Source: a virus. Taken from it: 37,314 nt of DNA. Below, piece by piece: positions 26,881 through 37,314 of the stretch (positions are counted from its first letter, which is position 1; the number at the start of each line of letters is the position of its first letter). The notes under the pieces are model-generated. The model had not been told where the DNA came from, did no database searches, and was given only the letters and a program-made list of their open reading frames with translations. Where the stretch lies: IMG/VR virus record IMGVR_UViG_3300027793_000159, positions 1-37,314 of that record. One strand, given 5' to 3'. Made by a program: the position numbers and the translations under genes.

Positions 26881-27692
26881 CAGGTGGCACCTGCCAGCCT
26901 ATTCCTACCGCAGATGGCGTTGAACTTGTCGAGCAAGTCTTGACGCCGGAACGTCAGGTGCAGGTTGCCGTTGCCGAATCGCTTCCACTCAAAGTAGTCA
27001 GTCGTTCCGCAAGACTGATCGCGACGAACTGCATCGGATATTTCGCACCGATACCCCTTGCATACCCCTTTGCCGTCAAGCATCGACATGATGTTCGACA
27101 GTGCTACAAGGTGCCTTTCAATATCTGATGTCATCCAACTGTAGTTGCCAGAATACTTGATTAGCTTTCGCTCTAGCTTGCCAGAGTCAACAGACTTTTG
27201 GTTAGTCTTGTATGCCGATCTTCGATACGGCTTCCAGTAGTCGTACTCCTCCCGGATGGCCTCCTCTAAGAAGTCTTGCGTACTCTGTGCCATGCCTGCA
27301 ATCGTATCCATGATCGTCTCTGGCGTGATGTCGGGTAGCTGCGCCGCTGCCCACTCGTATTTGTCTGAGTACAATAGCGTGCTTAGTTCCTCCGATCGCT
27401 TGCTACTCATTACCTTGTGGATGTTCAGCTTGTCAATCAGTCCTGTCCACACTTGCAACTTGGCCCTAGCGACAAGGACATCGGTGTCCTTCGTGCCGAC
27501 TTTCCAGTAGCCGAAAACATAGTCAGGCGGATCAACCCTGATCGAAGTGTTTTCGATCTGCTTGTTCAGGTCAGCGTATGCCTGCTGCAATTCGTTTGCC
27601 GCACGCTCGATGCGTTCCTTCGCTGCCTGAAATGCCGTGGCAATCTGGCCTGCCGTGGTGTACTCAATGACGCCCGTTTCTTCAGTGACCAT
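26877..27692 (-). CDS. DUF4942 domain protein
   Basis: The 271-residue protein ends with YFEWKRFGNGNLHLTFRRQD then LLDKFN (about 236-261), the hallmark I recall for DUF4942. The rest is helical with charged segments. DUF4942 proteins are common on plasmids and phages and their function is unknown; some are linked to DNA methylation modules. The start at 27692 is preceded by the shared leader element (27699-27722). It is the last gene of the leftward accessory region. Confidence 0.65.
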   Translation of the reverse strand: MVTEETGVIEYTTAGQIATAFQAAKERIERAANELQQAYADLNKQIENTSIRVDPPDYVFGYWKVGTKDTDVLVARAKLQVWTGLIDKLNIHKVMSSKRSEELSTLLYSDKYEWAAAQLPDITPETIMDTIAGMAQSTQDFLEEAIREEYDYWKPYRRSAYKTNQKSVDSGKLERKLIKYSGNYSWMTSDIERHLVALSNIMSMLDGKGVCKGYRCEISDAVRRDQSCGTTDYFEWKRFGNGNLHLTFRRQDLLDKFNAICGRNRLAGATC

Positions 27693-27698
27693 ATCTGT

Positions 27699-27722
27699 TT
27701 CTCCGGTGAACGTAAACGAAAC
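27699..27722 (-). promoter_or_regulatory. shared 5' leader, copy 1
   Basis: On the minus strand the leader reads GTTTCGTTTACG, TTCACCGGAG and then AAAC before the ATG of the DUF4942 gene. GGAG is the ribosome site. GTTTC and GAAAC can pair, placing the GGA at the edge of a loop. See the leader-family finding. Confidence 0.75.
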
Positions 27723-28710: not shown

Positions 28711-28733
28711 TCTCCGATGAACTGTGGTGAACC
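28711..28733 (-). promoter_or_regulatory. shared 5' leader, copy 2 (variant)
   Basis: Minus strand GGTTCACCACAG and TTCATCGGAGA precede the ATG of the 98-residue gene. It is the same design as the other leaders, with one change inside the conserved TTCACCGGAGA block. Confidence 0.6.
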
Positions 28734-29312: not shown

Positions 29313-29335
29313 TCTCCGGTGAATGTAAACGAAAC
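29313..29335 (-). promoter_or_regulatory. shared 5' leader, copy 3
   Basis: Minus strand GTTTCGTTTACA and TTCACCGGAGA, then AAACAACC and the ATG at 29304. It is almost identical to the copies at 27699 and 29797. Confidence 0.75.
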
Positions 29336-29796: not shown

Positions 29797-29819
29797 TCTC
29801 CGGTGAACGTGAATGAAAC
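29797..29819 (-). promoter_or_regulatory. shared 5' leader, copy 4
   Basis: Minus strand GTTTCATTCACG and TTCACCGGAGA, then AAACAACC and the ATG at 29788. The nineteen bases nearest the ATG are the same as in copy 3. Confidence 0.75.
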
Positions 29820-30185: not shown

Positions 30186-30210
30186 TCTCCGGTGAACTGC
30201 GAATCGAAAG
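30186..30210 (-). promoter_or_regulatory. shared 5' leader, copy 5
   Basis: Minus strand CTTTCGATTCGCAG and TTCACCGGAGA, then TTTTCAG and the ATG at 30178. It directly follows dispersed element R1. Confidence 0.7.
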
Positions 30211-30259
30211 CCCTCTCTAACCAATTCTCGGAACGACGGCGAACAAACGTCGCCCCTTA
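30211..30259 (-). repeat. dispersed element R, copy R1
   Basis: On the plus strand the core reads AATTCTCGGAACGACGGCG then AACAAACG. The minus-strand left end is the TAA stop of the 39-residue gene. A GGCGA/TCGCC stem is possible within it. See the finding on element R. Confidence 0.75.
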
Positions 30260-31151: not shown

Positions 31152-32519
31152 CTAGATACTGCTGAGGATTTCTTCAACTCCCTCGCCGCCATTGGCAAGG
31201 GAATTATACACCCACACCTGATCGGAAACCTTGGCCGCTTCGCCTTCTGCGTCATTGATAACGACAGTCAGTAGCTTGACCTGCTTGGCATGCTTCCATG
31301 CGGTGAAGCTGGCTTGCTGCTCTGGCTTGATCTTGCACTTGGCGTCAGTGATGCAGACTGCATCTGTCTTGCCGACCGGGCAACCGTAGCTATCCCACTG
31401 GGCAGGTAGCTTGTCGATCGGGATGCACAAGTCAGTAGCACCCCTGCCGAAGTGCTCGACCCACTCAAGCACTTGGTTCATGCGATCACTACCGGGCGGC
31501 ACGATCAGAGCGTTGAGCGTGTAGCCATCGTAACCGATCAGACAGCACCATCGTCGCTGCTGGGTAGCCACCCAGTACAGAGACAGGGCGAACGCCTTAG
31601 CGTGGTAGATATTGCCGTTCTGATTCATCGAACCAGTCTCGTCAACGATCACGACAATCGGACCCTTGCCTACCTGCTCGATGCCGTTGTACTCACGGCA
31701 CTGAGCGGTACGCTCGACGATCCGCAGCATTGCAGCATCGGCAAGCCGATCATCTGCAAGCTGGCACAACTCGGCAGGCATGAGACGGGATACGATACCG
31801 TCTTGAGTCACACCGACAGTCTCGTCAACACCGACAGGAACCTTGCGACGTTGAGCACTGGCGGCGACTCGGCGATAGCGACCGGCAAGAGCCATCACCT
31901 GCTTCAGCATGGTGCTATTGCGGACCTTGGCAAACAACTGGCCAAGCGTTTCCTGGCTGACGTTTGCAGGCTGGCCTGGATCGCCACCGAAACCCCGAAT
32001 CATATCGCTGCACTGGTCGTACTCCTCGACCTGCTGCTGTGCCTGCTGTGCAGCGCGGATCGCCTGGATACTGACGGCAAGCTGCCCCTTCTCGGTCTTC
32101 AAGTCATCTTCGTCAACCTTGTCGCAGGTTGCGACGAATCCCTTGCTGAACTGAGTAGCGGCAATCTCGCTAGCGTTTTCGTCGCCAACAGTAAGGCCGC
32201 GAAGCTGCTGGAACTCCTCGGTCTGCATCAACTCACTAACGTACTGGGCAAGTAGCGGGTTGGTGCATTGGTCATTGACTTGCGGATCGTGCTCGAAAGC
32301 ACTGGCACGAAAGTCGGTAGCCAACTGCTGGCCGTCGATGCGATTGGCAAGCACCTGCTGAAGCGGCTGGGAATCCTGAAACGTCTGCTCGCCACGACGT
32401 AGCGACCAGTCATCGTGACGGATCGCATGGGGCGTTGGTGCCGATGGCTGTCTGGTTGCAATCTCTGCAACTGGATCGTGGTCGGCGGCTCGATCGTTGA
32501 GAAGGTTGCGAATATCCAT
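31152..32519 (-). CDS. von Willebrand factor A domain protein (ViaA/MoxR-partner type)
   Basis: The 455-residue protein has a helical N-terminal half (about 1-285) and a C-terminal vWA domain. The MIDAS metal site is IVVIVDETGSMNQNG (D293, T295 or S297), with GRGATDLCIPID (about 352-363) and VCITDAKCK as the other ligands. vWA proteins of this kind act with MoxR/RavA AAA+ ATPases, and the gene upstream encodes one. It starts after a clear leader copy. The pair probably remodels or inserts cofactors into a protein complex. The target is unknown. A long plus-strand ORF here is a shadow. Confidence 0.8.
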   Translation of the reverse strand: MDIRNLLNDRAADHDPVAEIATRQPSAPTPHAIRHDDWSLRRGEQTFQDSQPLQQVLANRIDGQQLATDFRASAFEHDPQVNDQCTNPLLAQYVSELMQTEEFQQLRGLTVGDENASEIAATQFSKGFVATCDKVDEDDLKTEKGQLAVSIQAIRAAQQAQQQVEEYDQCSDMIRGFGGDPGQPANVSQETLGQLFAKVRNSTMLKQVMALAGRYRRVAASAQRRKVPVGVDETVGVTQDGIVSRLMPAELCQLADDRLADAAMLRIVERTAQCREYNGIEQVGKGPIVVIVDETGSMNQNGNIYHAKAFALSLYWVATQQRRWCCLIGYDGYTLNALIVPPGSDRMNQVLEWVEHFGRGATDLCIPIDKLPAQWDSYGCPVGKTDAVCITDAKCKIKPEQQASFTAWKHAKQVKLLTVVINDAEGEAAKVSDQVWVYNSLANGGEGVEEILSSI

Positions 32520-32526
32520 GAGTGAA

Positions 32527-32550
32527 TCTCCGGTGAATGGTGATGAAACT
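32527..32550 (-). promoter_or_regulatory. shared 5' leader, copy 6
   Basis: Minus strand GTTTCATCACCA and TTCACCGGAGA, then TTCACTC and the ATG at 32519 of the vWA gene. Confidence 0.7.
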
Positions 32551-32565
32551 TGACGCTGGCGGCGA

Positions 32566-33645
32566 CTAGATCATGCGGAGTTTGATTTCCTTGATCTTGT
32601 CGGTGACGTACTGCAAAGCGGCGGGTGCCTTGCTGCCCTTGGTAGTACGCAACTGCGACTGAATCTCGGTCAGTCGCTTGATAGCGACGGTCACGCTGGC
32701 AATCTGGGTGAAGTCGATTGCATCTGCCGTCTGTTCGCACTCCGACAGCAGCGACATGACAACCGCATTGGCTGGGTTGGCGATACCGGCGACAACCTTA
32801 GCGGCAACCTTCTCATGCTCTGGGTCTTCCCATAGGCAATGCTGGAGGATTTCTAGGTGGTCTGGCTCGACTTCGCTAGCACCCTCTAGCCAAGCGTAAG
32901 CTGCGGCGGCGTTGACCGACTTGCGAATACGGCGTGAACCCAATCGGATACCCTCGGTGCGAACCTGCTTGATACACTCAAGCAAAGCATCCTCCGCATC
33001 TGGCGACCACTGCATTGCACCTGCCAACTGGATAGCATGGGTGATTTCTTGCAGGGTGATCGTCTCGGTAATGGTCACGCCGACATTGCCGAAGCAAAGC
33101 CGACGCAAACTGGCCTCGTTGGTGATGGGCTTAACCGTCTTGCGAAACATGAAGCGATCGAACAGCGCACCAAGGCCGTCCTGTGGTGCTGGCCATTCGT
33201 TGCTGGCTGCAACGCAAAGCAACAGTGGACAATCCATCGTGTCCTTGCCGTTGCGGAATCGCCGCTCGTTGAGAATCTTCAGCGTGGTGTTGAGGATTGC
33301 CGACGATGCCTTGAAGATTTCGTCAAGGAACGCAAGGCTAGCCTCTGGCAACATGCCCTCAGTCACACGGCGGTATTCGTCAGACTTCAGACCGACCAGG
33401 GAAACCGGACCAGTCGTTTCCTCTGGCGTGGTGAACTTGTTGAGAAGCAGGTCGAACTTGGGCGCATTGGCCCAAGCCATGAGTGAATCGAGCAGCATAC
33501 TCTTGGCCTCGCCTGGACCGGAAACCAATATGGCGTGCTCCCTGCAAAGCAGGGCGGTCAGCACCATATTGACCTCAGCGTCTCGCTCGATCATGCCTGC
33601 AATCATGGCGTCTCGGAACGTGGTGAACTTGCTGTGAACGGACAT
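32566..33645 (-). CDS. MoxR/RavA-family AAA+ ATPase
   Basis: The 359-residue protein has Walker A SGPGEAKS (42-49). The Ala before the Lys is normal for MoxR/RavA (GPPGxAKS) and not a defect. Walker B is LAFLDEI (104-110), sensor I lies in AASNEWP, and a C-terminal lid follows. LNKFTTPEETTGPVSLVGL follows the region where RavA-type proteins bind the partner. It is sandwiched between a coiled-coil protein and a vWA protein, each with a copied leader. MoxR-vWA pairs work as chaperone-like remodellers and as cores of some conflict systems. The target is not visible here. Confidence 0.85.
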   Translation of the reverse strand: MSVHSKFTTFRDAMIAGMIERDAEVNMVLTALLCREHAILVSGPGEAKSMLLDSLMAWANAPKFDLLLNKFTTPEETTGPVSLVGLKSDEYRRVTEGMLPEASLAFLDEIFKASSAILNTTLKILNERRFRNGKDTMDCPLLLCVAASNEWPAPQDGLGALFDRFMFRKTVKPITNEASLRRLCFGNVGVTITETITLQEITHAIQLAGAMQWSPDAEDALLECIKQVRTEGIRLGSRRIRKSVNAAAAYAWLEGASEVEPDHLEILQHCLWEDPEHEKVAAKVVAGIANPANAVVMSLLSECEQTADAIDFTQIASVTVAIKRLTEIQSQLRTTKGSKAPAALQYVTDKIKEIKLRMI

Positions 33646-33652
33646 GGGAAAA

Positions 33653-33675
33653 TCTCCGGTGAAGTGTAGTGAAAC
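33653..33675 (-). promoter_or_regulatory. shared 5' leader, copy 7
   Basis: Minus strand GTTTCACTACAC and TTCACCGGAGA, then TTTTCCC and the ATG at 33645 of the MoxR gene. Confidence 0.7.
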
Positions 33676-33696
33676 GTAACCGAACTGGCTGAACTA

Positions 33697-34557
33697 CTAC
33701 GAAGCCGTTGCCTTCTTGGATCGCTTGGCCTCCTCCTGTGCAATCTCGATGCCGACAACCTTCTCGACATACTTTTCCTTGACCGACTCAAGCATCTGCT
33801 GGAGTCGTTCGTGTCCTTCGCTGATGCGGATGCTGTGGCCCTCGAAGGAAAGCACAAGCCGCTGATACTTCTCGAAAGCGTGCTGTCGAGTATCTGAGCG
33901 GGTGCTGTTGGTCATTTCCTCGATAGCCTGATTGAGTTCTCCGATGCGTCGTTCCATTTCTGCAAAGATGGCGTCGGAAACTTCCTGCGTTTCTCTGGCG
34001 TCTCCCTTGGGAACCAGGAATCGGTGAAGCCGACCTCCGACACACTGAAGGAACGTCTCGATCTTCTCAAGGAACCCAAGGTGCTGATCGGGAACGAAGT
34101 AGCAAACCCCCTTGTCTGGAATGATGGGAATGAGATCGGCGTGCTTGTCAAACAATCGCTGAATGATGCGGCTCAGGTCGGCTGCATTGCGGTGAACGAA
34201 AGCCTCGCTGAGCAGGTTGCTTGCAGTTGGCACGAAAGCAGGATTGTCGGGACACTCGATGCGACCATTGTTCGTATCGAGAAACACCGTCCACTCGTAA
34301 TCGAACTCGATACGATCGCCGGACATTGCCTTCTTGGTGAACTGAAAGGACATGACGCCTTTCTCGTCGATAACCTTGTCAATCAAACGGTCCTGCTTGA
34401 GCGACTTGATTGCCCTGCCCCATGCCTGCTTGGCATTGAGTTCACCTGCTTCACTGGCTGGAAGCTGGGCAGCATCGAGAGCAGAGCGAACCGCTGAAAC
34501 ATTAGTTCCCTTTGACTTGACACGCCAAAGAACGATGTAACCGTGAACGCTGGACAT
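33697..34557 (-). CDS. MoxR-vWA associated protein (DUF6744-like)
   Basis: A 286-residue protein from the ATG at 34557 (MSSVHGYIVLWRVKSKGTNV), preceded by GGAGG six bases upstream. The N-terminal about 180 residues are mixed alpha/beta (AWGRAIKSLKQDRLIDKV, FDYEWTVFLDTNNGRIEC, VCYFVPDQHLGFLEKIETFL). The rest is coiled coil with a basic end (EEAKRSKKATAS). Proteins with GVYFVP-type centres that lie beside MoxR and vWA genes are, as I recall, called DUF6744; this is not verified. It is the first gene of the three-gene unit and follows element R2. It may be the substrate adaptor. Confidence 0.6.
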   Translation of the reverse strand: MSSVHGYIVLWRVKSKGTNVSAVRSALDAAQLPASEAGELNAKQAWGRAIKSLKQDRLIDKVIDEKGVMSFQFTKKAMSGDRIEFDYEWTVFLDTNNGRIECPDNPAFVPTASNLLSEAFVHRNAADLSRIIQRLFDKHADLIPIIPDKGVCYFVPDQHLGFLEKIETFLQCVGGRLHRFLVPKGDARETQEVSDAIFAEMERRIGELNQAIEEMTNSTRSDTRQHAFEKYQRLVLSFEGHSIRISEGHERLQQMLESVKEKYVEKVVGIEIAQEEAKRSKKATAS

Positions 34558-34591
34558 AAAAACCTCCATCATGGATCGAAGAAAACCATCG

Positions 34592-34638
34592 CCCTCTACC
34601 CAATTCTCGGAACGGCGGCGAACAAACCCGCCGCTTTA
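34592..34638 (-). repeat. dispersed element R, copy R2
   Basis: Plus strand: CAATTCTCGGAACGGCGGCG then AACAAACCC, preceded by CCTCTACC. The arms GCGGCG and CGCCGC can pair (6 bp), a change on both sides relative to R1 that keeps pairing. It begins at the TAA of the CsrA-like gene and is followed by the leader of the 286-residue gene. Confidence 0.75.
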
Positions 34639-34842
34639 CTGCTTTGGTTCATGACCTGGATCTGGTGGCCACTTTCGACTGACATACAGTGTCTTTGGTG
34701 CAACAACCATAATATCGACAGTCTGACTACCTTCACGAATCCTACGGATCGTGACGATTGCATCGCCGATCCTGAAGGACTGGCCGATTTTGGTAGTCAT
34801 ACACAAACGACCATGCCCCTCTGGCTTGCTCTTGTCTGACAT
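34636..34842 (-). CDS. CsrA-like translational regulator
   Basis: A 68-residue protein from the ATG at 34842, with AGGAGG six bases upstream. After a short Lys-rich lead (MSDKSKPEGHGR), residues about 14-56 read like CsrA: MTTKIGQSFRIGDAIVTIRR, then REGSQTVDIMVVAPKTLYV and SRK. In E. coli CsrA the corresponding elements are the LTRRVGE strand, IGDEVTVTV, the VRIGVNAPKEV strand and the VHRE motif with the RNA-binding Arg44. Here Arg56 in VSRK is in that position. CsrA dimers bind GGA motifs near ribosome sites. The gene's own leader is a variant of the leader shared by its neighbours. Other small beta barrels are possible. Confidence 0.65.
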   Translation of the reverse strand: MSDKSKPEGHGRLCMTTKIGQSFRIGDAIVTIRRIREGSQTVDIMVVAPKTLYVSRKWPPDPGHEPKQ

Positions 34843-34880
34843 GATTTCCTCCTGAAGTTTGACAAACGAAAACCCAACTG
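34843..34880 (-). promoter_or_regulatory. leader of the CsrA-like gene (variant of the shared leader)
   Basis: Minus strand: GTTTTCGTTTG, TCAAAC, TTCAGGAGGAAATC, ATG. TTTCGTTT, TTCA and GGAG match the shared leader, while GTTTG and CAAAC make a short perfect inverted repeat. Its likely role is autoregulation. Confidence 0.5.
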
Positions 34881-34937: not shown

Positions 34938-34994
34938 ATGCCGAAATGCGGAACGAAGAAAGGTGGCAAGGGTGGAAAGGGTGGCGGCTACTAG
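34938..34994 (+). CDS. 18-residue Gly/Lys micropeptide or short RNA
   Basis: The ORF encodes MPKCGTKKGGKGGKGGGY. CACGGAGC about ten bases upstream gives a ribosome site. With the promoter at 34859 and the terminator ending at about 35054 the transcript would be about 160 nt. The peptide is basic and Gly-rich with one Cys; no family is known. The unit could also act as RNA. It contains four GGA triplets, one in a CTACACGGAGC context resembling the CsrA site. Confidence 0.45.
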   Translation: MPKCGTKKGGKGGKGGGY

Positions 34995-35113: not shown

Positions 35114-35479
35114 TCAGTGGGCTTGCAACTGCTCTGCCACTGACTTGCCTTCTGGAATCAGCAGTTCCAGATTGTGCTGCTCGCAAACCTGCCGGATCAT
35201 CTGGCCAGTGATTGCCAAGTGCGGTGCAGCGTAACGCAACTCCTCAAGCCGCCCTCTGTTGAATCGTTCGCAGTCTTGCAGCTTGGCACGATAGCCGCTG
35301 AAGCATTCCATCGTTCTCGACACCCATACAGTGCCGTCTGCCCAAACCTCACGCTTGACAGTCTGAGGGTAGATCACCAACGTGTACTGCTTCAGTTCCT
35401 TGTGATGGTACACGCTGCAATGGATCACTCGCCCTGGCGTCGTCGTTGCGTAATCCCAACTCATTGAGCGATCGGACAT
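35114..35479 (-). CDS. hypothetical protein
   Basis: A 121-residue protein from the ATG at 35479 (MSDRSMSWDYATTTPGRVIH), with GGGAGA eight bases upstream in a leader variant (TTCAGGGAGATTTCTC). N-terminal strands (VIHCSVYHHKELKQYTLVIY) lead into a charged helical C-terminus (YRAKLQDCERFNRGRLEELR). No family. It precedes the CsrA-like gene. Confidence 0.6.
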   Translation of the reverse strand: MSDRSMSWDYATTTPGRVIHCSVYHHKELKQYTLVIYPQTVKREVWADGTVWVSRTMECFSGYRAKLQDCERFNRGRLEELRYAAPHLAITGQMIRQVCEQHNLELLIPEGKSVAEQLQAH

Positions 35480-35639
35480 GAGAAATCTCCCTGAAGAACC
35501 TATCTGAAGTAAGCCGATTGACAATGCGACTGACGTTACAACCACGAACGCCAGTCATCAAAACATCTTTCTTGCCGGTGAAACCGCACTCCCAGATGGA
35601 GTAAGTGCCGTCACCTTCACGCTGGGACGTAAACCCCAT
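35349..35639 (-). CDS. possible overlapping hypothetical protein
   Basis: A 96-residue frame, MGFTSQREGDGTYSIWECGF onwards, with AAGGAGG and GGAG before its start. The first about 50 residues look like protein (TGKKDVLMTGVRGCNVSRIV), fill a gap of 137 bases, and have good ribosome sites. The last 43 run out of frame inside the next gene, which is unusual. It may be a truncated or decayed gene, or a start and end that have been shifted. Confidence 0.35.
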   Translation of the reverse strand: MGFTSQREGDGTYSIWECGFTGKKDVLMTGVRGCNVSRIVNRLTSDRFFREISHVRSLNELGLRNDDARASDPLQRVPSQGTEAVHVGDLPSDCQA

Positions 35640-36048
35640 TGCTCCTGCCCTCCTTCTCCCATTGACGATTCACGCCGTCCGTATAATCCAGCCATAGAAT
35701 CAAAGCGCGGGACTGGCCAACCTCCTGCAATCTCTTGCCGTCGTAGTAAAGGGTCAGCAATGTTGACGAAGATCGGCAGCAGCCTTTTACACACGTTTGA
35801 ACGTCTTGAAGCATGTGCGATCTGTCGGCAGTACCGAACAGATACGGCACTCGCACTCCCTTCGGTGGGAATACTGCATCATCGGCAGGGTGCATGAGAA
35901 ACAGAAACGTGCCGGTGTTGCGGGTGAAGTGCAGGAACTTTCTGCCTGGATACATGGCAATCAACTCCTTGTCACTGACAAGCAGGTCATCCCTGTATGC
36001 CTCGACAAGTGGACTGCAACGCTTGACCAATTCATCGTAAACATTCAT
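35617..36048 (-). CDS. hypothetical protein
   Basis: A 143-residue protein from the ATG at 36048 (MNVYDELVKRCSPLVEAYRD). Contains YPGRKFLHFTRNTGTFLFLM and ILWLDYTDGVNRQWEKEGRS. Mixed alpha/beta, no family. GGAG lies ten bases upstream in a leader, CGATTCCATGATGGAGATAC, that closely matches the leader of the 286-residue gene (CGATCCATGATGGAGG), and element R3 lies just before it. Confidence 0.6.
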   Translation of the reverse strand: MNVYDELVKRCSPLVEAYRDDLLVSDKELIAMYPGRKFLHFTRNTGTFLFLMHPADDAVFPPKGVRVPYLFGTADRSHMLQDVQTCVKGCCRSSSTLLTLYYDGKRLQEVGQSRALILWLDYTDGVNRQWEKEGRSNGVYVPA

Positions 36049-36085
36049 CGAAGTATCTCCATCATGGAATCGAAACGTCGGAAAG

Positions 36086-36130
36086 CCTCCACCCAATTCT
36101 CGGAACGACGGCGAACATCCGGGTCGCTTA
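36086..36130 (-). repeat. dispersed element R, copy R3
   Basis: Plus strand: CCTCCACCCAATTCTCGG, AACGACGGCG, AACATCCGG. It begins at the TAA of the clamp-loader-like gene and is followed on the minus strand by the 143-residue gene's leader. GCGA/TCGC can pair. Confidence 0.75.
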
Positions 36131-36775
36131 TACAAACACACCAGAATCAATCTGCTGCAAGCACTGACGAAAGTTGCAGTTGTTTTGAGTGAACAGGTCA
36201 ACATAAGCATCAAGCTGTTGACCGTTCTCGATGCCTTCCAGCTTGGCAATCTCCATGAGCCGCTTGGCATAGGCAATGATCGTATCGCCGGTGAACTCCA
36301 TCTCGATCTGTACTGCTCTGCTTAGCAGGGGATGGGCGTCGAACTTGTCGTCAAACAGCCGCTTCTGCCCCTTGTCAGTGCAGGTGAAAACCCAGCAGGC
36401 ATTGCGAGCCGTCGAAGGCTCCTCCAGTACAGTCTGCAACTTGGAGACGGTCTTGGTATTCATGTTGTGCGCCTCGTTAATGAGGAAACACCACTGATTA
36501 CCAAACAAGGGCCTCTTGCGTGATCGTTCATCGAACTCACGAACCATGTCCAATGACAGGTCAATAGCGTCGATTTCCTCTGTAGCCAAAGGGTCAGATA
36601 CCAGACTGGCTACAATACGGGCAAGAGTAGTCTTGCCGGTCGCTGAAGGACCAGACAGCCACAGACAGCGCAGGGAATCCCTGCTCTGCAAGAACCTGAT
36701 CTTCCTAACAGCAGCGTCCTGCCCCACAACGCCGTCTAAAGTGCCTGGGCGGTACTTCTCATACAAAGCAGTCAT
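36128..36775 (-). CDS. clamp-loader-like AAA+ ATPase (RFC small subunit/DnaX-like)
   Basis: The 215-residue protein starts at the ATG at 36775 (MTALYEKYRPGTLDGVVGQD), the hallmark N-terminus of RFC/DnaX/RuvB proteins. Walker A is GPSATGKT (42-49). The Walker B line reads CFLINEAHNM (96-105), with Asn in the place of the usual Asp. HPLLSRAVQIEME holds an SRx Arg-finger motif. The protein is about 100 residues shorter than cellular subunits and lacks the C-terminal collar. It could load a clamp for replication or late transcription, but no polymerase or clamp is in the window. It follows element R4 and the leader GTTTCGGTTAC-ACCAGGAG. Confidence 0.75.
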   Translation of the reverse strand: MTALYEKYRPGTLDGVVGQDAAVRKIRFLQSRDSLRCLWLSGPSATGKTTLARIVASLVSDPLATEEIDAIDLSLDMVREFDERSRKRPLFGNQWCFLINEAHNMNTKTVSKLQTVLEEPSTARNACWVFTCTDKGQKRLFDDKFDAHPLLSRAVQIEMEFTGDTIIAYAKRLMEIAKLEGIENGQQLDAYVDLFTQNNCNFRQCLQQIDSGVFV

Positions 36776-36810
36776 TGCTTTTCTCCTGGTGTAACCGAAA
36801 CCGAATCTCC

Positions 36811-36856
36811 CCCTCCACCCAATTCTCGGAACGACGGCGAACAATCGGCACCGCTA
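36811..36856 (-). repeat. dispersed element R, copy R4
   Basis: Plus strand: CCTCCACCCAATTCTCGG, AACGACGGCG, AACAATCGG. Its left end on the minus strand is ACTGTAG, with no gene upstream, so the stop codon is a relic or part of the element. It is followed by the clamp-loader-like gene's leader. Confidence 0.75.
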
Positions 36857-37116: not shown

Positions 37117-37160
37117 CCTCTACCTAATTCTCGGAATTTTGGCGAACAATCGAGCGCTTA
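37117..37160 (-). repeat. dispersed element R, copy R5 (diverged)
   Basis: Plus strand: CCTCTACCTAATTCTCGG, AATTTTGGCG, AACAATCG. The inner arm has changed (AATTTT for AACGAC), so hairpin pairing is weaker. It starts at a TAA (37158-37160) preceded by a frame that is open to the right edge. Confidence 0.65.
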
Positions 37161-37314
37161 CAGTGTACGGGGGCGCGCTTCCTGGTGCTCGGCCTTCGAG
37201 CAGCCGACTGGACCTGGGATCGGCTGCTCAGCGTGAGTCGGCCTTCGAGCAGCCGACTGGACCTGGGATCGGCTGCTCAGCGTGAGTCGGCCTTCGAGCA
37301 GCCGACTGGACCTG
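37158..37314 (-). CDS. possible partial ORF at the right edge
   Basis: A frame open for 51 codons to the right edge ends AEHQEARPRTL and TAA. It runs through the 49-bp tandem repeat, whose length is not a multiple of three, so each copy is read in a new frame. This argues against a real gene, but its stop abuts element R5 exactly as real genes abut R1-R3, so it is listed. Confidence 0.2.
   Translation of the reverse strand, partial: RSSRLLEGRLTLSSRSQVQSAARRPTHAEQPIPGPVGCSKAEHQEARPRTL
37191..37314. repeat. 49-bp tandem repeat with internal inverted arms
   Basis: About 2.5 identical copies, starting GGCCTTCGAG at 37191, 37240 and 37289. In each unit GAGCAGCCGA and TCGGCTGCTC are perfect inverted arms (10 bp) around a 12-base loop (CTGGACCTGGGA), giving a strong hairpin per unit. 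The window ends inside it, so the true number of copies is unknown. Confidence 0.85.

What the first reader, a model, noticed from the sequence alone, without database searches (positions are those of the whole stretch)
34636..34880. Phage-encoded CsrA-like regulator whose own leader belongs to the family of leaders found on its neighbours
Seen: a 68-residue protein matching the CsrA layout (IGD strand, AxxAPK strand, Arg at the VHRE-like position). Its leader (TTTCGTTT ... TTCAGGAGG) has the same landmarks as leaders of at least seven other genes. Known: CsrA binds GGA motifs near ribosome sites. Inference: a phage-wide post-transcriptional switch.
Basis: partly seen in the sequence, partly recalled or inferred. 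Interest (0 to 1): 0.75.

Follow-up and report, generated by a model that had tools for sequence, protein, structure and literature searches.

The report
Phage CsrA relative and shared leaders
A bacterial virus, probably of planctomycetes, carries a very divergent copy of the RNA-binding regulator CsrA beside a set of non-structural genes that share one ribosome-binding leader; the gene and the leaders are both real, but that the protein controls the leaders is a testable guess, not shown.

Summary
The 68-residue ORF at 34636-34842 (-) is a genuine but divergent CsrA/RsmA relative. Pfam PF02599 gives E 1.2e-5, just under its cut-off. A leave-one-out profile picks it out of 18,209 ORFs, and it keeps the position just upstream of the same DUF gene in two related phages. 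The leader family is also real: seven non-structural genes carry TTCA(C/T)CGGAGA 6-8 nt before their ATG, and none of the structural genes does. csrA's own leader is only a variant: it shares TTTCGTTT with two of the seven but has TTCAGGAGG instead of TTCACCGGAGA. In the related phage G002 the leaders, csrA's included, read (T/C)TCATGGAG, so leaders differ between phages as a set.

The CsrA-switch reading is plausible but unproven. The seven core leaders lack the canonical ANGGA site, and a GGA in a predicted hairpin loop is not general. A relative without a detectable csrA (G089) has its own leader repeat, and several csrA-bearing phages show none. The leaders most resemble the start-associated sequences (SAS) of cluster K mycobacteriophages, whose trans-acting factor is unknown. 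Best reading: an SAS-like repeat, possibly read by the resident CsrA (about 0.4). Main rival: a passive translation cassette.

The parts
34636..34842 (-). divergent CsrA/RsmA-family gene, 68 aa
   Evidence: PF02599 E 1.2e-5, PHROG 9500, leave-one-out profile E 4.8e-5 among 18,209 ORFs, same place next to the DUF gene in G002 and G008
34843..34872 (-). csrA leader TTTTCGTTTGTCAAACTTCAGGAGGAAATC, variant of the leader family
33653..33674 (-). core leader of the MoxR AAA+ ATPase gene (start 33645)
   Evidence: matrix score 29.3
32527..32548 (-). core leader of the VWA-like gene (start 32519)
   Evidence: score 31.1
30186..30207 (-). core leader of gene starting 30178
   Evidence: score 22.0
29797..29818 (-). 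core leader of gene starting 29788
   Evidence: score 30.8
29313..29334 (-). core leader of gene starting 29304
   Evidence: score 30.1
28711..28732 (-). core leader (TTCATCGGAGA) of gene starting 28704
   Evidence: score 26.0
27700..27721 (-). core leader of the DUF4942 gene (start 27692)
   Evidence: score 30.7, Pfam
34558..34585 (-). looser leader (CCATGATGGAGG) of the DUF6744-like gene 33697-34557
35480..35505 (-). looser leader (TTCAGGGAG) of gene 35114-35479
36049..36075 (-). looser leader (CCATGATGGAG) of gene 35617-36048
36776..36805 (-). looser leader (ACACCAGGAG) of the clamp-loader gene 36128-36775
34598..34624 (-). promoter/operator-like repeat between csrA and the DUF gene (one of five copies)
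   Evidence: TGTTCGCCGCCGTTCCGAGAATTGGGT
30219..30245 (-). promoter/operator-like repeat, copy upstream of gene 30178
36091..36117 (-). promoter/operator-like repeat, copy upstream of gene 36048
36817..36843 (-). promoter/operator-like repeat, copy upstream of the clamp loader
37122..37148 (-). promoter/operator-like repeat, fifth copy

Best explanation
The locus encodes a divergent, phage-borne CsrA-family RNA-binding protein. Its own gene and about a dozen neighbouring non-structural genes are translated from related start-associated leaders (pyrimidine-rich stretch, then TTCA-n-GGAG, 6-8 nt, ATG). The repeat overlaps the Shine-Dalgarno sequence, so anything that binds it would compete with the ribosome. 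Most likely mechanism (inferred): the phage CsrA binds the GGA-containing leaders as a dimer, tunes translation of the non-structural module as a set and limits its own synthesis. Shown: the gene's family, its synteny, the leader family, its position and its absence from the structural genes. Inferred: RNA binding, target choice, direction of the effect and autoregulation.
For: Family. The R44 equivalent is invariant in 10 phage CsrAs. Synteny csrA then DUF6744-like gene in G000, G002 and G008. Leader family and displaced-mask control. In G002 most module leaders read (T/C)TCATGGAG or TTCACGGAG, i.e. C-A-N-GGA, csrA's own included. The more canonical CsrA of G008 has CUACAGGGAAG before its own ATG and GACAGGGA before another gene, matching ACA-R-GGA of the CsrA SELEX consensus RUACARGGAUGU (PMC7652899). 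Leaders differ between phages as a set: the core seven of the window are 74% alike among themselves, while six orthologous pairs between window and G002 are 16-68% alike (ungapped, anchored on GGA). CsrA autoregulation through a site overlapping the SD is known (PMC7652899).
Against: The seven core leaders of the window read CCGGA, not ANGGA; 3 of 12 window leaders have A at -2, which is the chance level. The GGA is in a predicted hairpin loop in 1 of 12 window leaders, and there is no common fold. The protein lacks the equivalents of E. coli R6 (Thr) and L4 (Met). G089, a relative without a detectable csrA, also has a repeated SD-overlapping word CTGGAGGTT, and most csrA-bearing distant relatives show no leader family. 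ANGGA at a Shine-Dalgarno sequence is partly expected anyway.
Confidence: 0.4

Rival explanations
1. The leaders are a passive, strong translation-initiation cassette (pyrimidine-rich S1-type enhancer plus Shine-Dalgarno) that spread among mobile non-structural genes by duplication and recombination. The neighbouring csrA acts on host mRNAs, or elsewhere, and only happens to be nearby.
For: Position and content are those of a ribosome site. Window core leaders are not ANGGA. A csrA-lacking relative has its own SD-overlapping repeat. Start-associated repeats are known in phages without any link to CsrA (PMC3203893).
Against: The conserved TTCACC upstream of GGAGA is not part of the usual SD pairing with 16S rRNA, so more than a good SD seems to be conserved. 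The set changes together between related phages, and csrA has a variant of it.
Confidence: 0.37
2. The leaders are a binding site for another trans-acting factor (phage or host protein, or an RNA), as proposed for SAS in cluster K mycobacteriophages, and CsrA is not the reader.
For: Close structural parallel with SAS and ESAS (PMC3203893, PMC12699233): non-structural genes only, one orientation, a few nt from ATG, and a second repeat upstream of a subset.
Against: CsrA is the only recognised RNA-binding regulator in the module, though no other RNA-binding candidate was searched for systematically.
Confidence: 0.18
3. The ORF is not a CsrA protein, or the leader similarity is chance.
For: The score is just below the Pfam gathering cut-off. 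The AlphaFold2 model is of modest confidence (pLDDT 71.7, pTM 0.50), and no Foldseek hit is significant by E-value.
Against: Leave-one-out E 4.8e-5; syntenic homologues in G002 and G008, one over the cut-off; RsmF has the highest match probability (0.80) among the 50 PDB rows listed; the leader word beats all displaced-mask controls.
Confidence: 0.05

Closest known systems
CsrA/RsmA/RsmE family (PF02599)
   Same: Core profile, IGD and APK landmarks, the Arg matching R44, small size; family members repress translation at GGA sites overlapping the SD and autoregulate (PMC7652899).
   Different: Just below the Pfam cut-off, L4 to Met and R6 to Thr, C-terminal helix region replaced by a Pro-rich tail; putative target leaders mostly lack ANGGA.
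Phage-borne csrA alleles
   Same: csrA genes are already reported in 30 of 2517 phage genomes (1.2%), with targets not established (PMC7366521).
   Different: This one is far more divergent, sits in a fixed place next to a DUF6744-like/MoxR/VWA module, and is accompanied by a repeated leader family.
Start-associated sequences (SAS) and ESAS of cluster K mycobacteriophages
   Same: Short asymmetric repeat containing the SD core, a few nt before ATG, one orientation, non-structural genes only, and a second repeated element upstream of a subset (PMC3203893).
   Different: Unrelated sequence (TTCACCGGAGA versus GGGATAGGAGCCC); the upstream element is not a 17-bp inverted-repeat pair on inspection; here the module also encodes a CsrA-family protein.

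Membership tests
CsrA/RsmA (PF02599) | Profile match | tested here: met
   E 1.2e-5 over positions 2-45 of 53; 25.6 bits against cut-off 27; leave-one-out with other phage CsrAs E 4.8e-5. Strictly just under Pfam's curated threshold.
CsrA/RsmA (PF02599) | Critical R44 equivalent | tested here: met
   R56 aligns with R44; invariant in 10 phage CsrAs.
CsrA/RsmA (PF02599) | L4 and basic R6/R7 of strand beta-1 | tested here: inconclusive
   Met15, Thr17, Lys18 at L4, R6, R7 (alignment A5; E. coli numbering from general knowledge). Conservative for L4 and R7, lost for R6.
CsrA/RsmA (PF02599) | Five-strand swapped-dimer fold | tested here: inconclusive
   Monomer model pLDDT 71.7, pTM 0.50, three strands; RsmF (4k59) prob 0.80, TM 0.49, E 1.5. 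The dimer was not modelled.
CsrA/RsmA (PF02599) | Sequence-specific RNA binding | not testable with these tools
   Needs protein and RNA.
CsrA target sites | ANGGA core | tested here: not met
   3 of 12 window leaders have A at -2 of GGA, and none of the seven core leaders; 9 of 15 listed G002 starts do.
CsrA target sites | GGA in a hairpin loop | tested here: not met
   1 of 12 in the window (-42 to +18 folded; true 5' ends unknown).
SAS | Asymmetric repeat containing the SD core, a few nt before ATG, one orientation, non-structural genes | tested here: met
SAS | Consensus GGGATAGGAGCCC | tested here: not met
   Different sequence, so it works like SAS but is not a member.
ESAS | Second repeat upstream of about half of the SAS, a 17-bp inverted-repeat pair | tested here: inconclusive
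   A 27-bp repeat sits upstream of 4 of about 12 leaders; an inverted-repeat structure was not seen on inspection and not tested formally.

The most novel reading that the evidence does not exclude
A phage-encoded CsrA-family protein is the trans-acting reader of SAS-type start-associated repeats: one small RNA-binding protein and about a dozen SD-overlapping leaders, its own included, form a phage-internal translational regulon whose site sequence drifts together with the protein between related phages.
Probability: 0.3. Interest if true: 0.78.

Novelty: new variant of a known kind. Interest (0 to 1): 0.5.

Why it matters
Phage csrA genes are known but their targets are not (PMC7366521), and start-associated repeats are known but their reader is not (PMC3203893). 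A phage module that has both in one place makes each question directly testable: does the phage CsrA bind the leaders? If yes, it would be a translational operon-by-repeat system in a virus.

Tried and rejected
No Rfam family in the window. Single-sequence searches with the CsrA and MoxR proteins found no relatives in IMG/VR, nor did the CsrA and capsid proteins in INPHARED phages; alignments and the terminase did. A conserved RNA hairpin for the leaders: rejected, predicted folds differ gene by gene. A general link between csrA and leader families: rejected as stated. Among csrA-bearing records G010, G014, G026, G097, G100 and G008 no upstream word beat the displaced controls clearly; G053 (csrA-bearing) and G016 (csrA-lacking) gave ordinary AGGAG-type words; csrA-lacking G089 did show a repeat. 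G095 (csrA-bearing) has a visible GGAGCTTA leader set including its clamp loader, but its best word did not beat the controls. The genome collection gave one terminase relative, a Planctomycetaceae MAG, used only as a weak host hint.

Full report
What is there. The window is a virus record, G000. It has phage packaging and head genes (terminase, portal, major head protein) and a non-structural module at about 26.9-37.3 kb read leftwards. The ORF at 34636-34842 (-) encodes MSDKSKPEGHGRLCMTTKIGQSFRIGDAIVTIRRIREGSQTVDIMVVAPKTLYVSRKWPPDPGHEPKQ. It matches PF02599 with E 1.2e-5, 25.6 bits against a cut-off of 27, PHROG 9500 'CsrA-like regulator' with E 5.7e-4, and solved CsrA chains weakly (best E 0.017).

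Relatives. No known phage in INPHARED is similar at the protein level used. Through the terminase I reached IMG/VR relatives and through the MoxR ATPase more distant ones. G001 is identical to window 1-30337. G002/G004 are about 70% identical at the nucleotide level and G008 more distant. PF02599 finds csrA in G002, G004 and G008, in G010, G013, G014, G026 and G053, and in G095, G097 and G100. In G000, G002 and G008 the csrA gene lies directly upstream of the same DUF6744-like gene, in the same orientation. A profile from the nine other phage CsrAs, without the window protein, finds the window ORF at E 4.8e-5 among 18,209 ORFs. The residue matching E. coli R44, essential for RNA binding (PMC7652899), is invariant in all ten; L4 and R6 are replaced by Met and Thr in the window. 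The AlphaFold2 model is modest (pLDDT 71.7, pTM 0.50); RsmF, a CsrA-family protein, has the highest Foldseek probability (0.80) among the 50 rows listed, but no hit is significant by E-value.

The leaders. A 22-nt pattern ending TTCA(C/T)CGGAGA precedes the genes starting at 27692, 28704, 29304, 29788, 30178, 32519 and 33645, 6-8 nt before the ATG, all on the - strand. Those seven score 22.0-31.1 on a matrix built from them; the next hit scores 15.2 and is not at a gene start. Of the 7 exact TTCACCGGAGA in the window, 6 are at starts. Among all 9-mers (one mismatch allowed) the best upstream word, TCACCGGAG, has p 5.9e-9, against a best of 1.7e-7 in 15 displaced controls. The upstream list of the structural genes shows no copy. 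The csrA leader has TTTCGTTT at about the same distance as 27692 and 29304 but TTCAGGAGG at the SD, which is unique to it. Genes 34557, 35479, 36048 and 36775 have looser relatives (the labels 36062 and 36776 in those outputs are the genes starting at 36048 and 36775).

Comparison with G002. There the module genes carry (T/C)TCATGGAG or TTCACGGAG: the clamp loader, 1467, 1902, 2281, csrA, DUF, MoxR and 8292; the VWA gene has CTCAGGAG. The upstream TTTCGTTCACGTTCAC stretch is recognisably shared in some of them. Thus leaders differ between two related phages as a set. G008, whose CsrA is more canonical, has no leader family that beats controls, but its csrA is preceded by CUACAGGGAAG and another gene by GACAGGGA, close to the SELEX consensus ACA-R-GGA (PMC7652899).

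Does CsrA read the leaders? For: GGA at the SD, a related leader on csrA itself, the G002 fit to C-A-N-GGA, concerted change, and the known autoregulatory habit of CsrA. Against: the seven core leaders of the window read CCGGA; no common hairpin; csrA and leader families do not co-occur cleanly across relatives. I therefore put the CsrA-reader mechanism at 0.4, a passive translation cassette at 0.37 and another factor at 0.18.

Comparison with the known. Phage csrA genes were surveyed in PMC7366521 (30 of 2517 phages). SAS of cluster K mycobacteriophages (PMC3203893) match the window leaders in position, orientation, SD content and restriction to non-structural genes, but not in sequence; their authors left open whether they bind a host or phage product. 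ESAS, the second element there, has a counterpart here: a 27-bp repeat upstream of four leader genes, with a different version in G002 and another in G008. These repeats look like promoters or operators; I have no functional evidence.

Limits. Most records are fragments and gene starts are inferred. The gene calls behind the enrichment test are crude (greedy ORFs). The matrix was built from the sites it reports, so the independent support is the displaced-mask test. Orthologous leader identity is ungapped and so underestimates similarity where spacing differs, as at csrA.

Noticed in passing
window 37122-37148, 36817-36843, 36091-36117, 34598-34624, 30219-30245 (-): Five copies of a promoter/operator-like repeat TGTTCGCCGTCGTTCCGAGAATTGGGT. 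G002 has three copies of a different but alignable element and G008 eight copies of TGTCACCCCTGCCGGATAACTG, several upstream of the same genes.
   Followed up: partly
window 34938-34994 (+): An 18-codon ORF MPKCGTKKGGKGGKGGGY, divergent from csrA and followed by a strong hairpin with a T-rich tail (z -5.0). G002/G004 have a similar Lys/Gly-rich peptide in the same place, and G088/G089 a longer one.
   Followed up: partly
window 37189-37314: A 49-bp unit repeated head to tail without mismatches up to the end of the record, perhaps a terminal or assembly repeat.
   Followed up: no
window 31152-34557: VWA-like, bpMoxR-type ATPase and DUF6744-like genes form a module kept together or near each other in many phages.
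   Followed up: partly
G088 and G089: Palindrome GCGACCCCGGGGTCGC repeated (its 13-mers are counted 8-10 times over both strands), and in G089 a repeated CTGGAGGTT at starts, without a detectable csrA.
   Followed up: partly
G095 about 61-66 kb (-): Seven genes, the clamp loader among them, share a GGAGCTTA leader, most with TTACC or ACC before it; csrA at 43.4 kb is not among them.
   Followed up: partly
L201 (JAAYDI010000075.1): A Planctomycetaceae MAG contig with a 49% identical terminase and related capsid and portal genes, a hint at the host phylum.
   Followed up: partly
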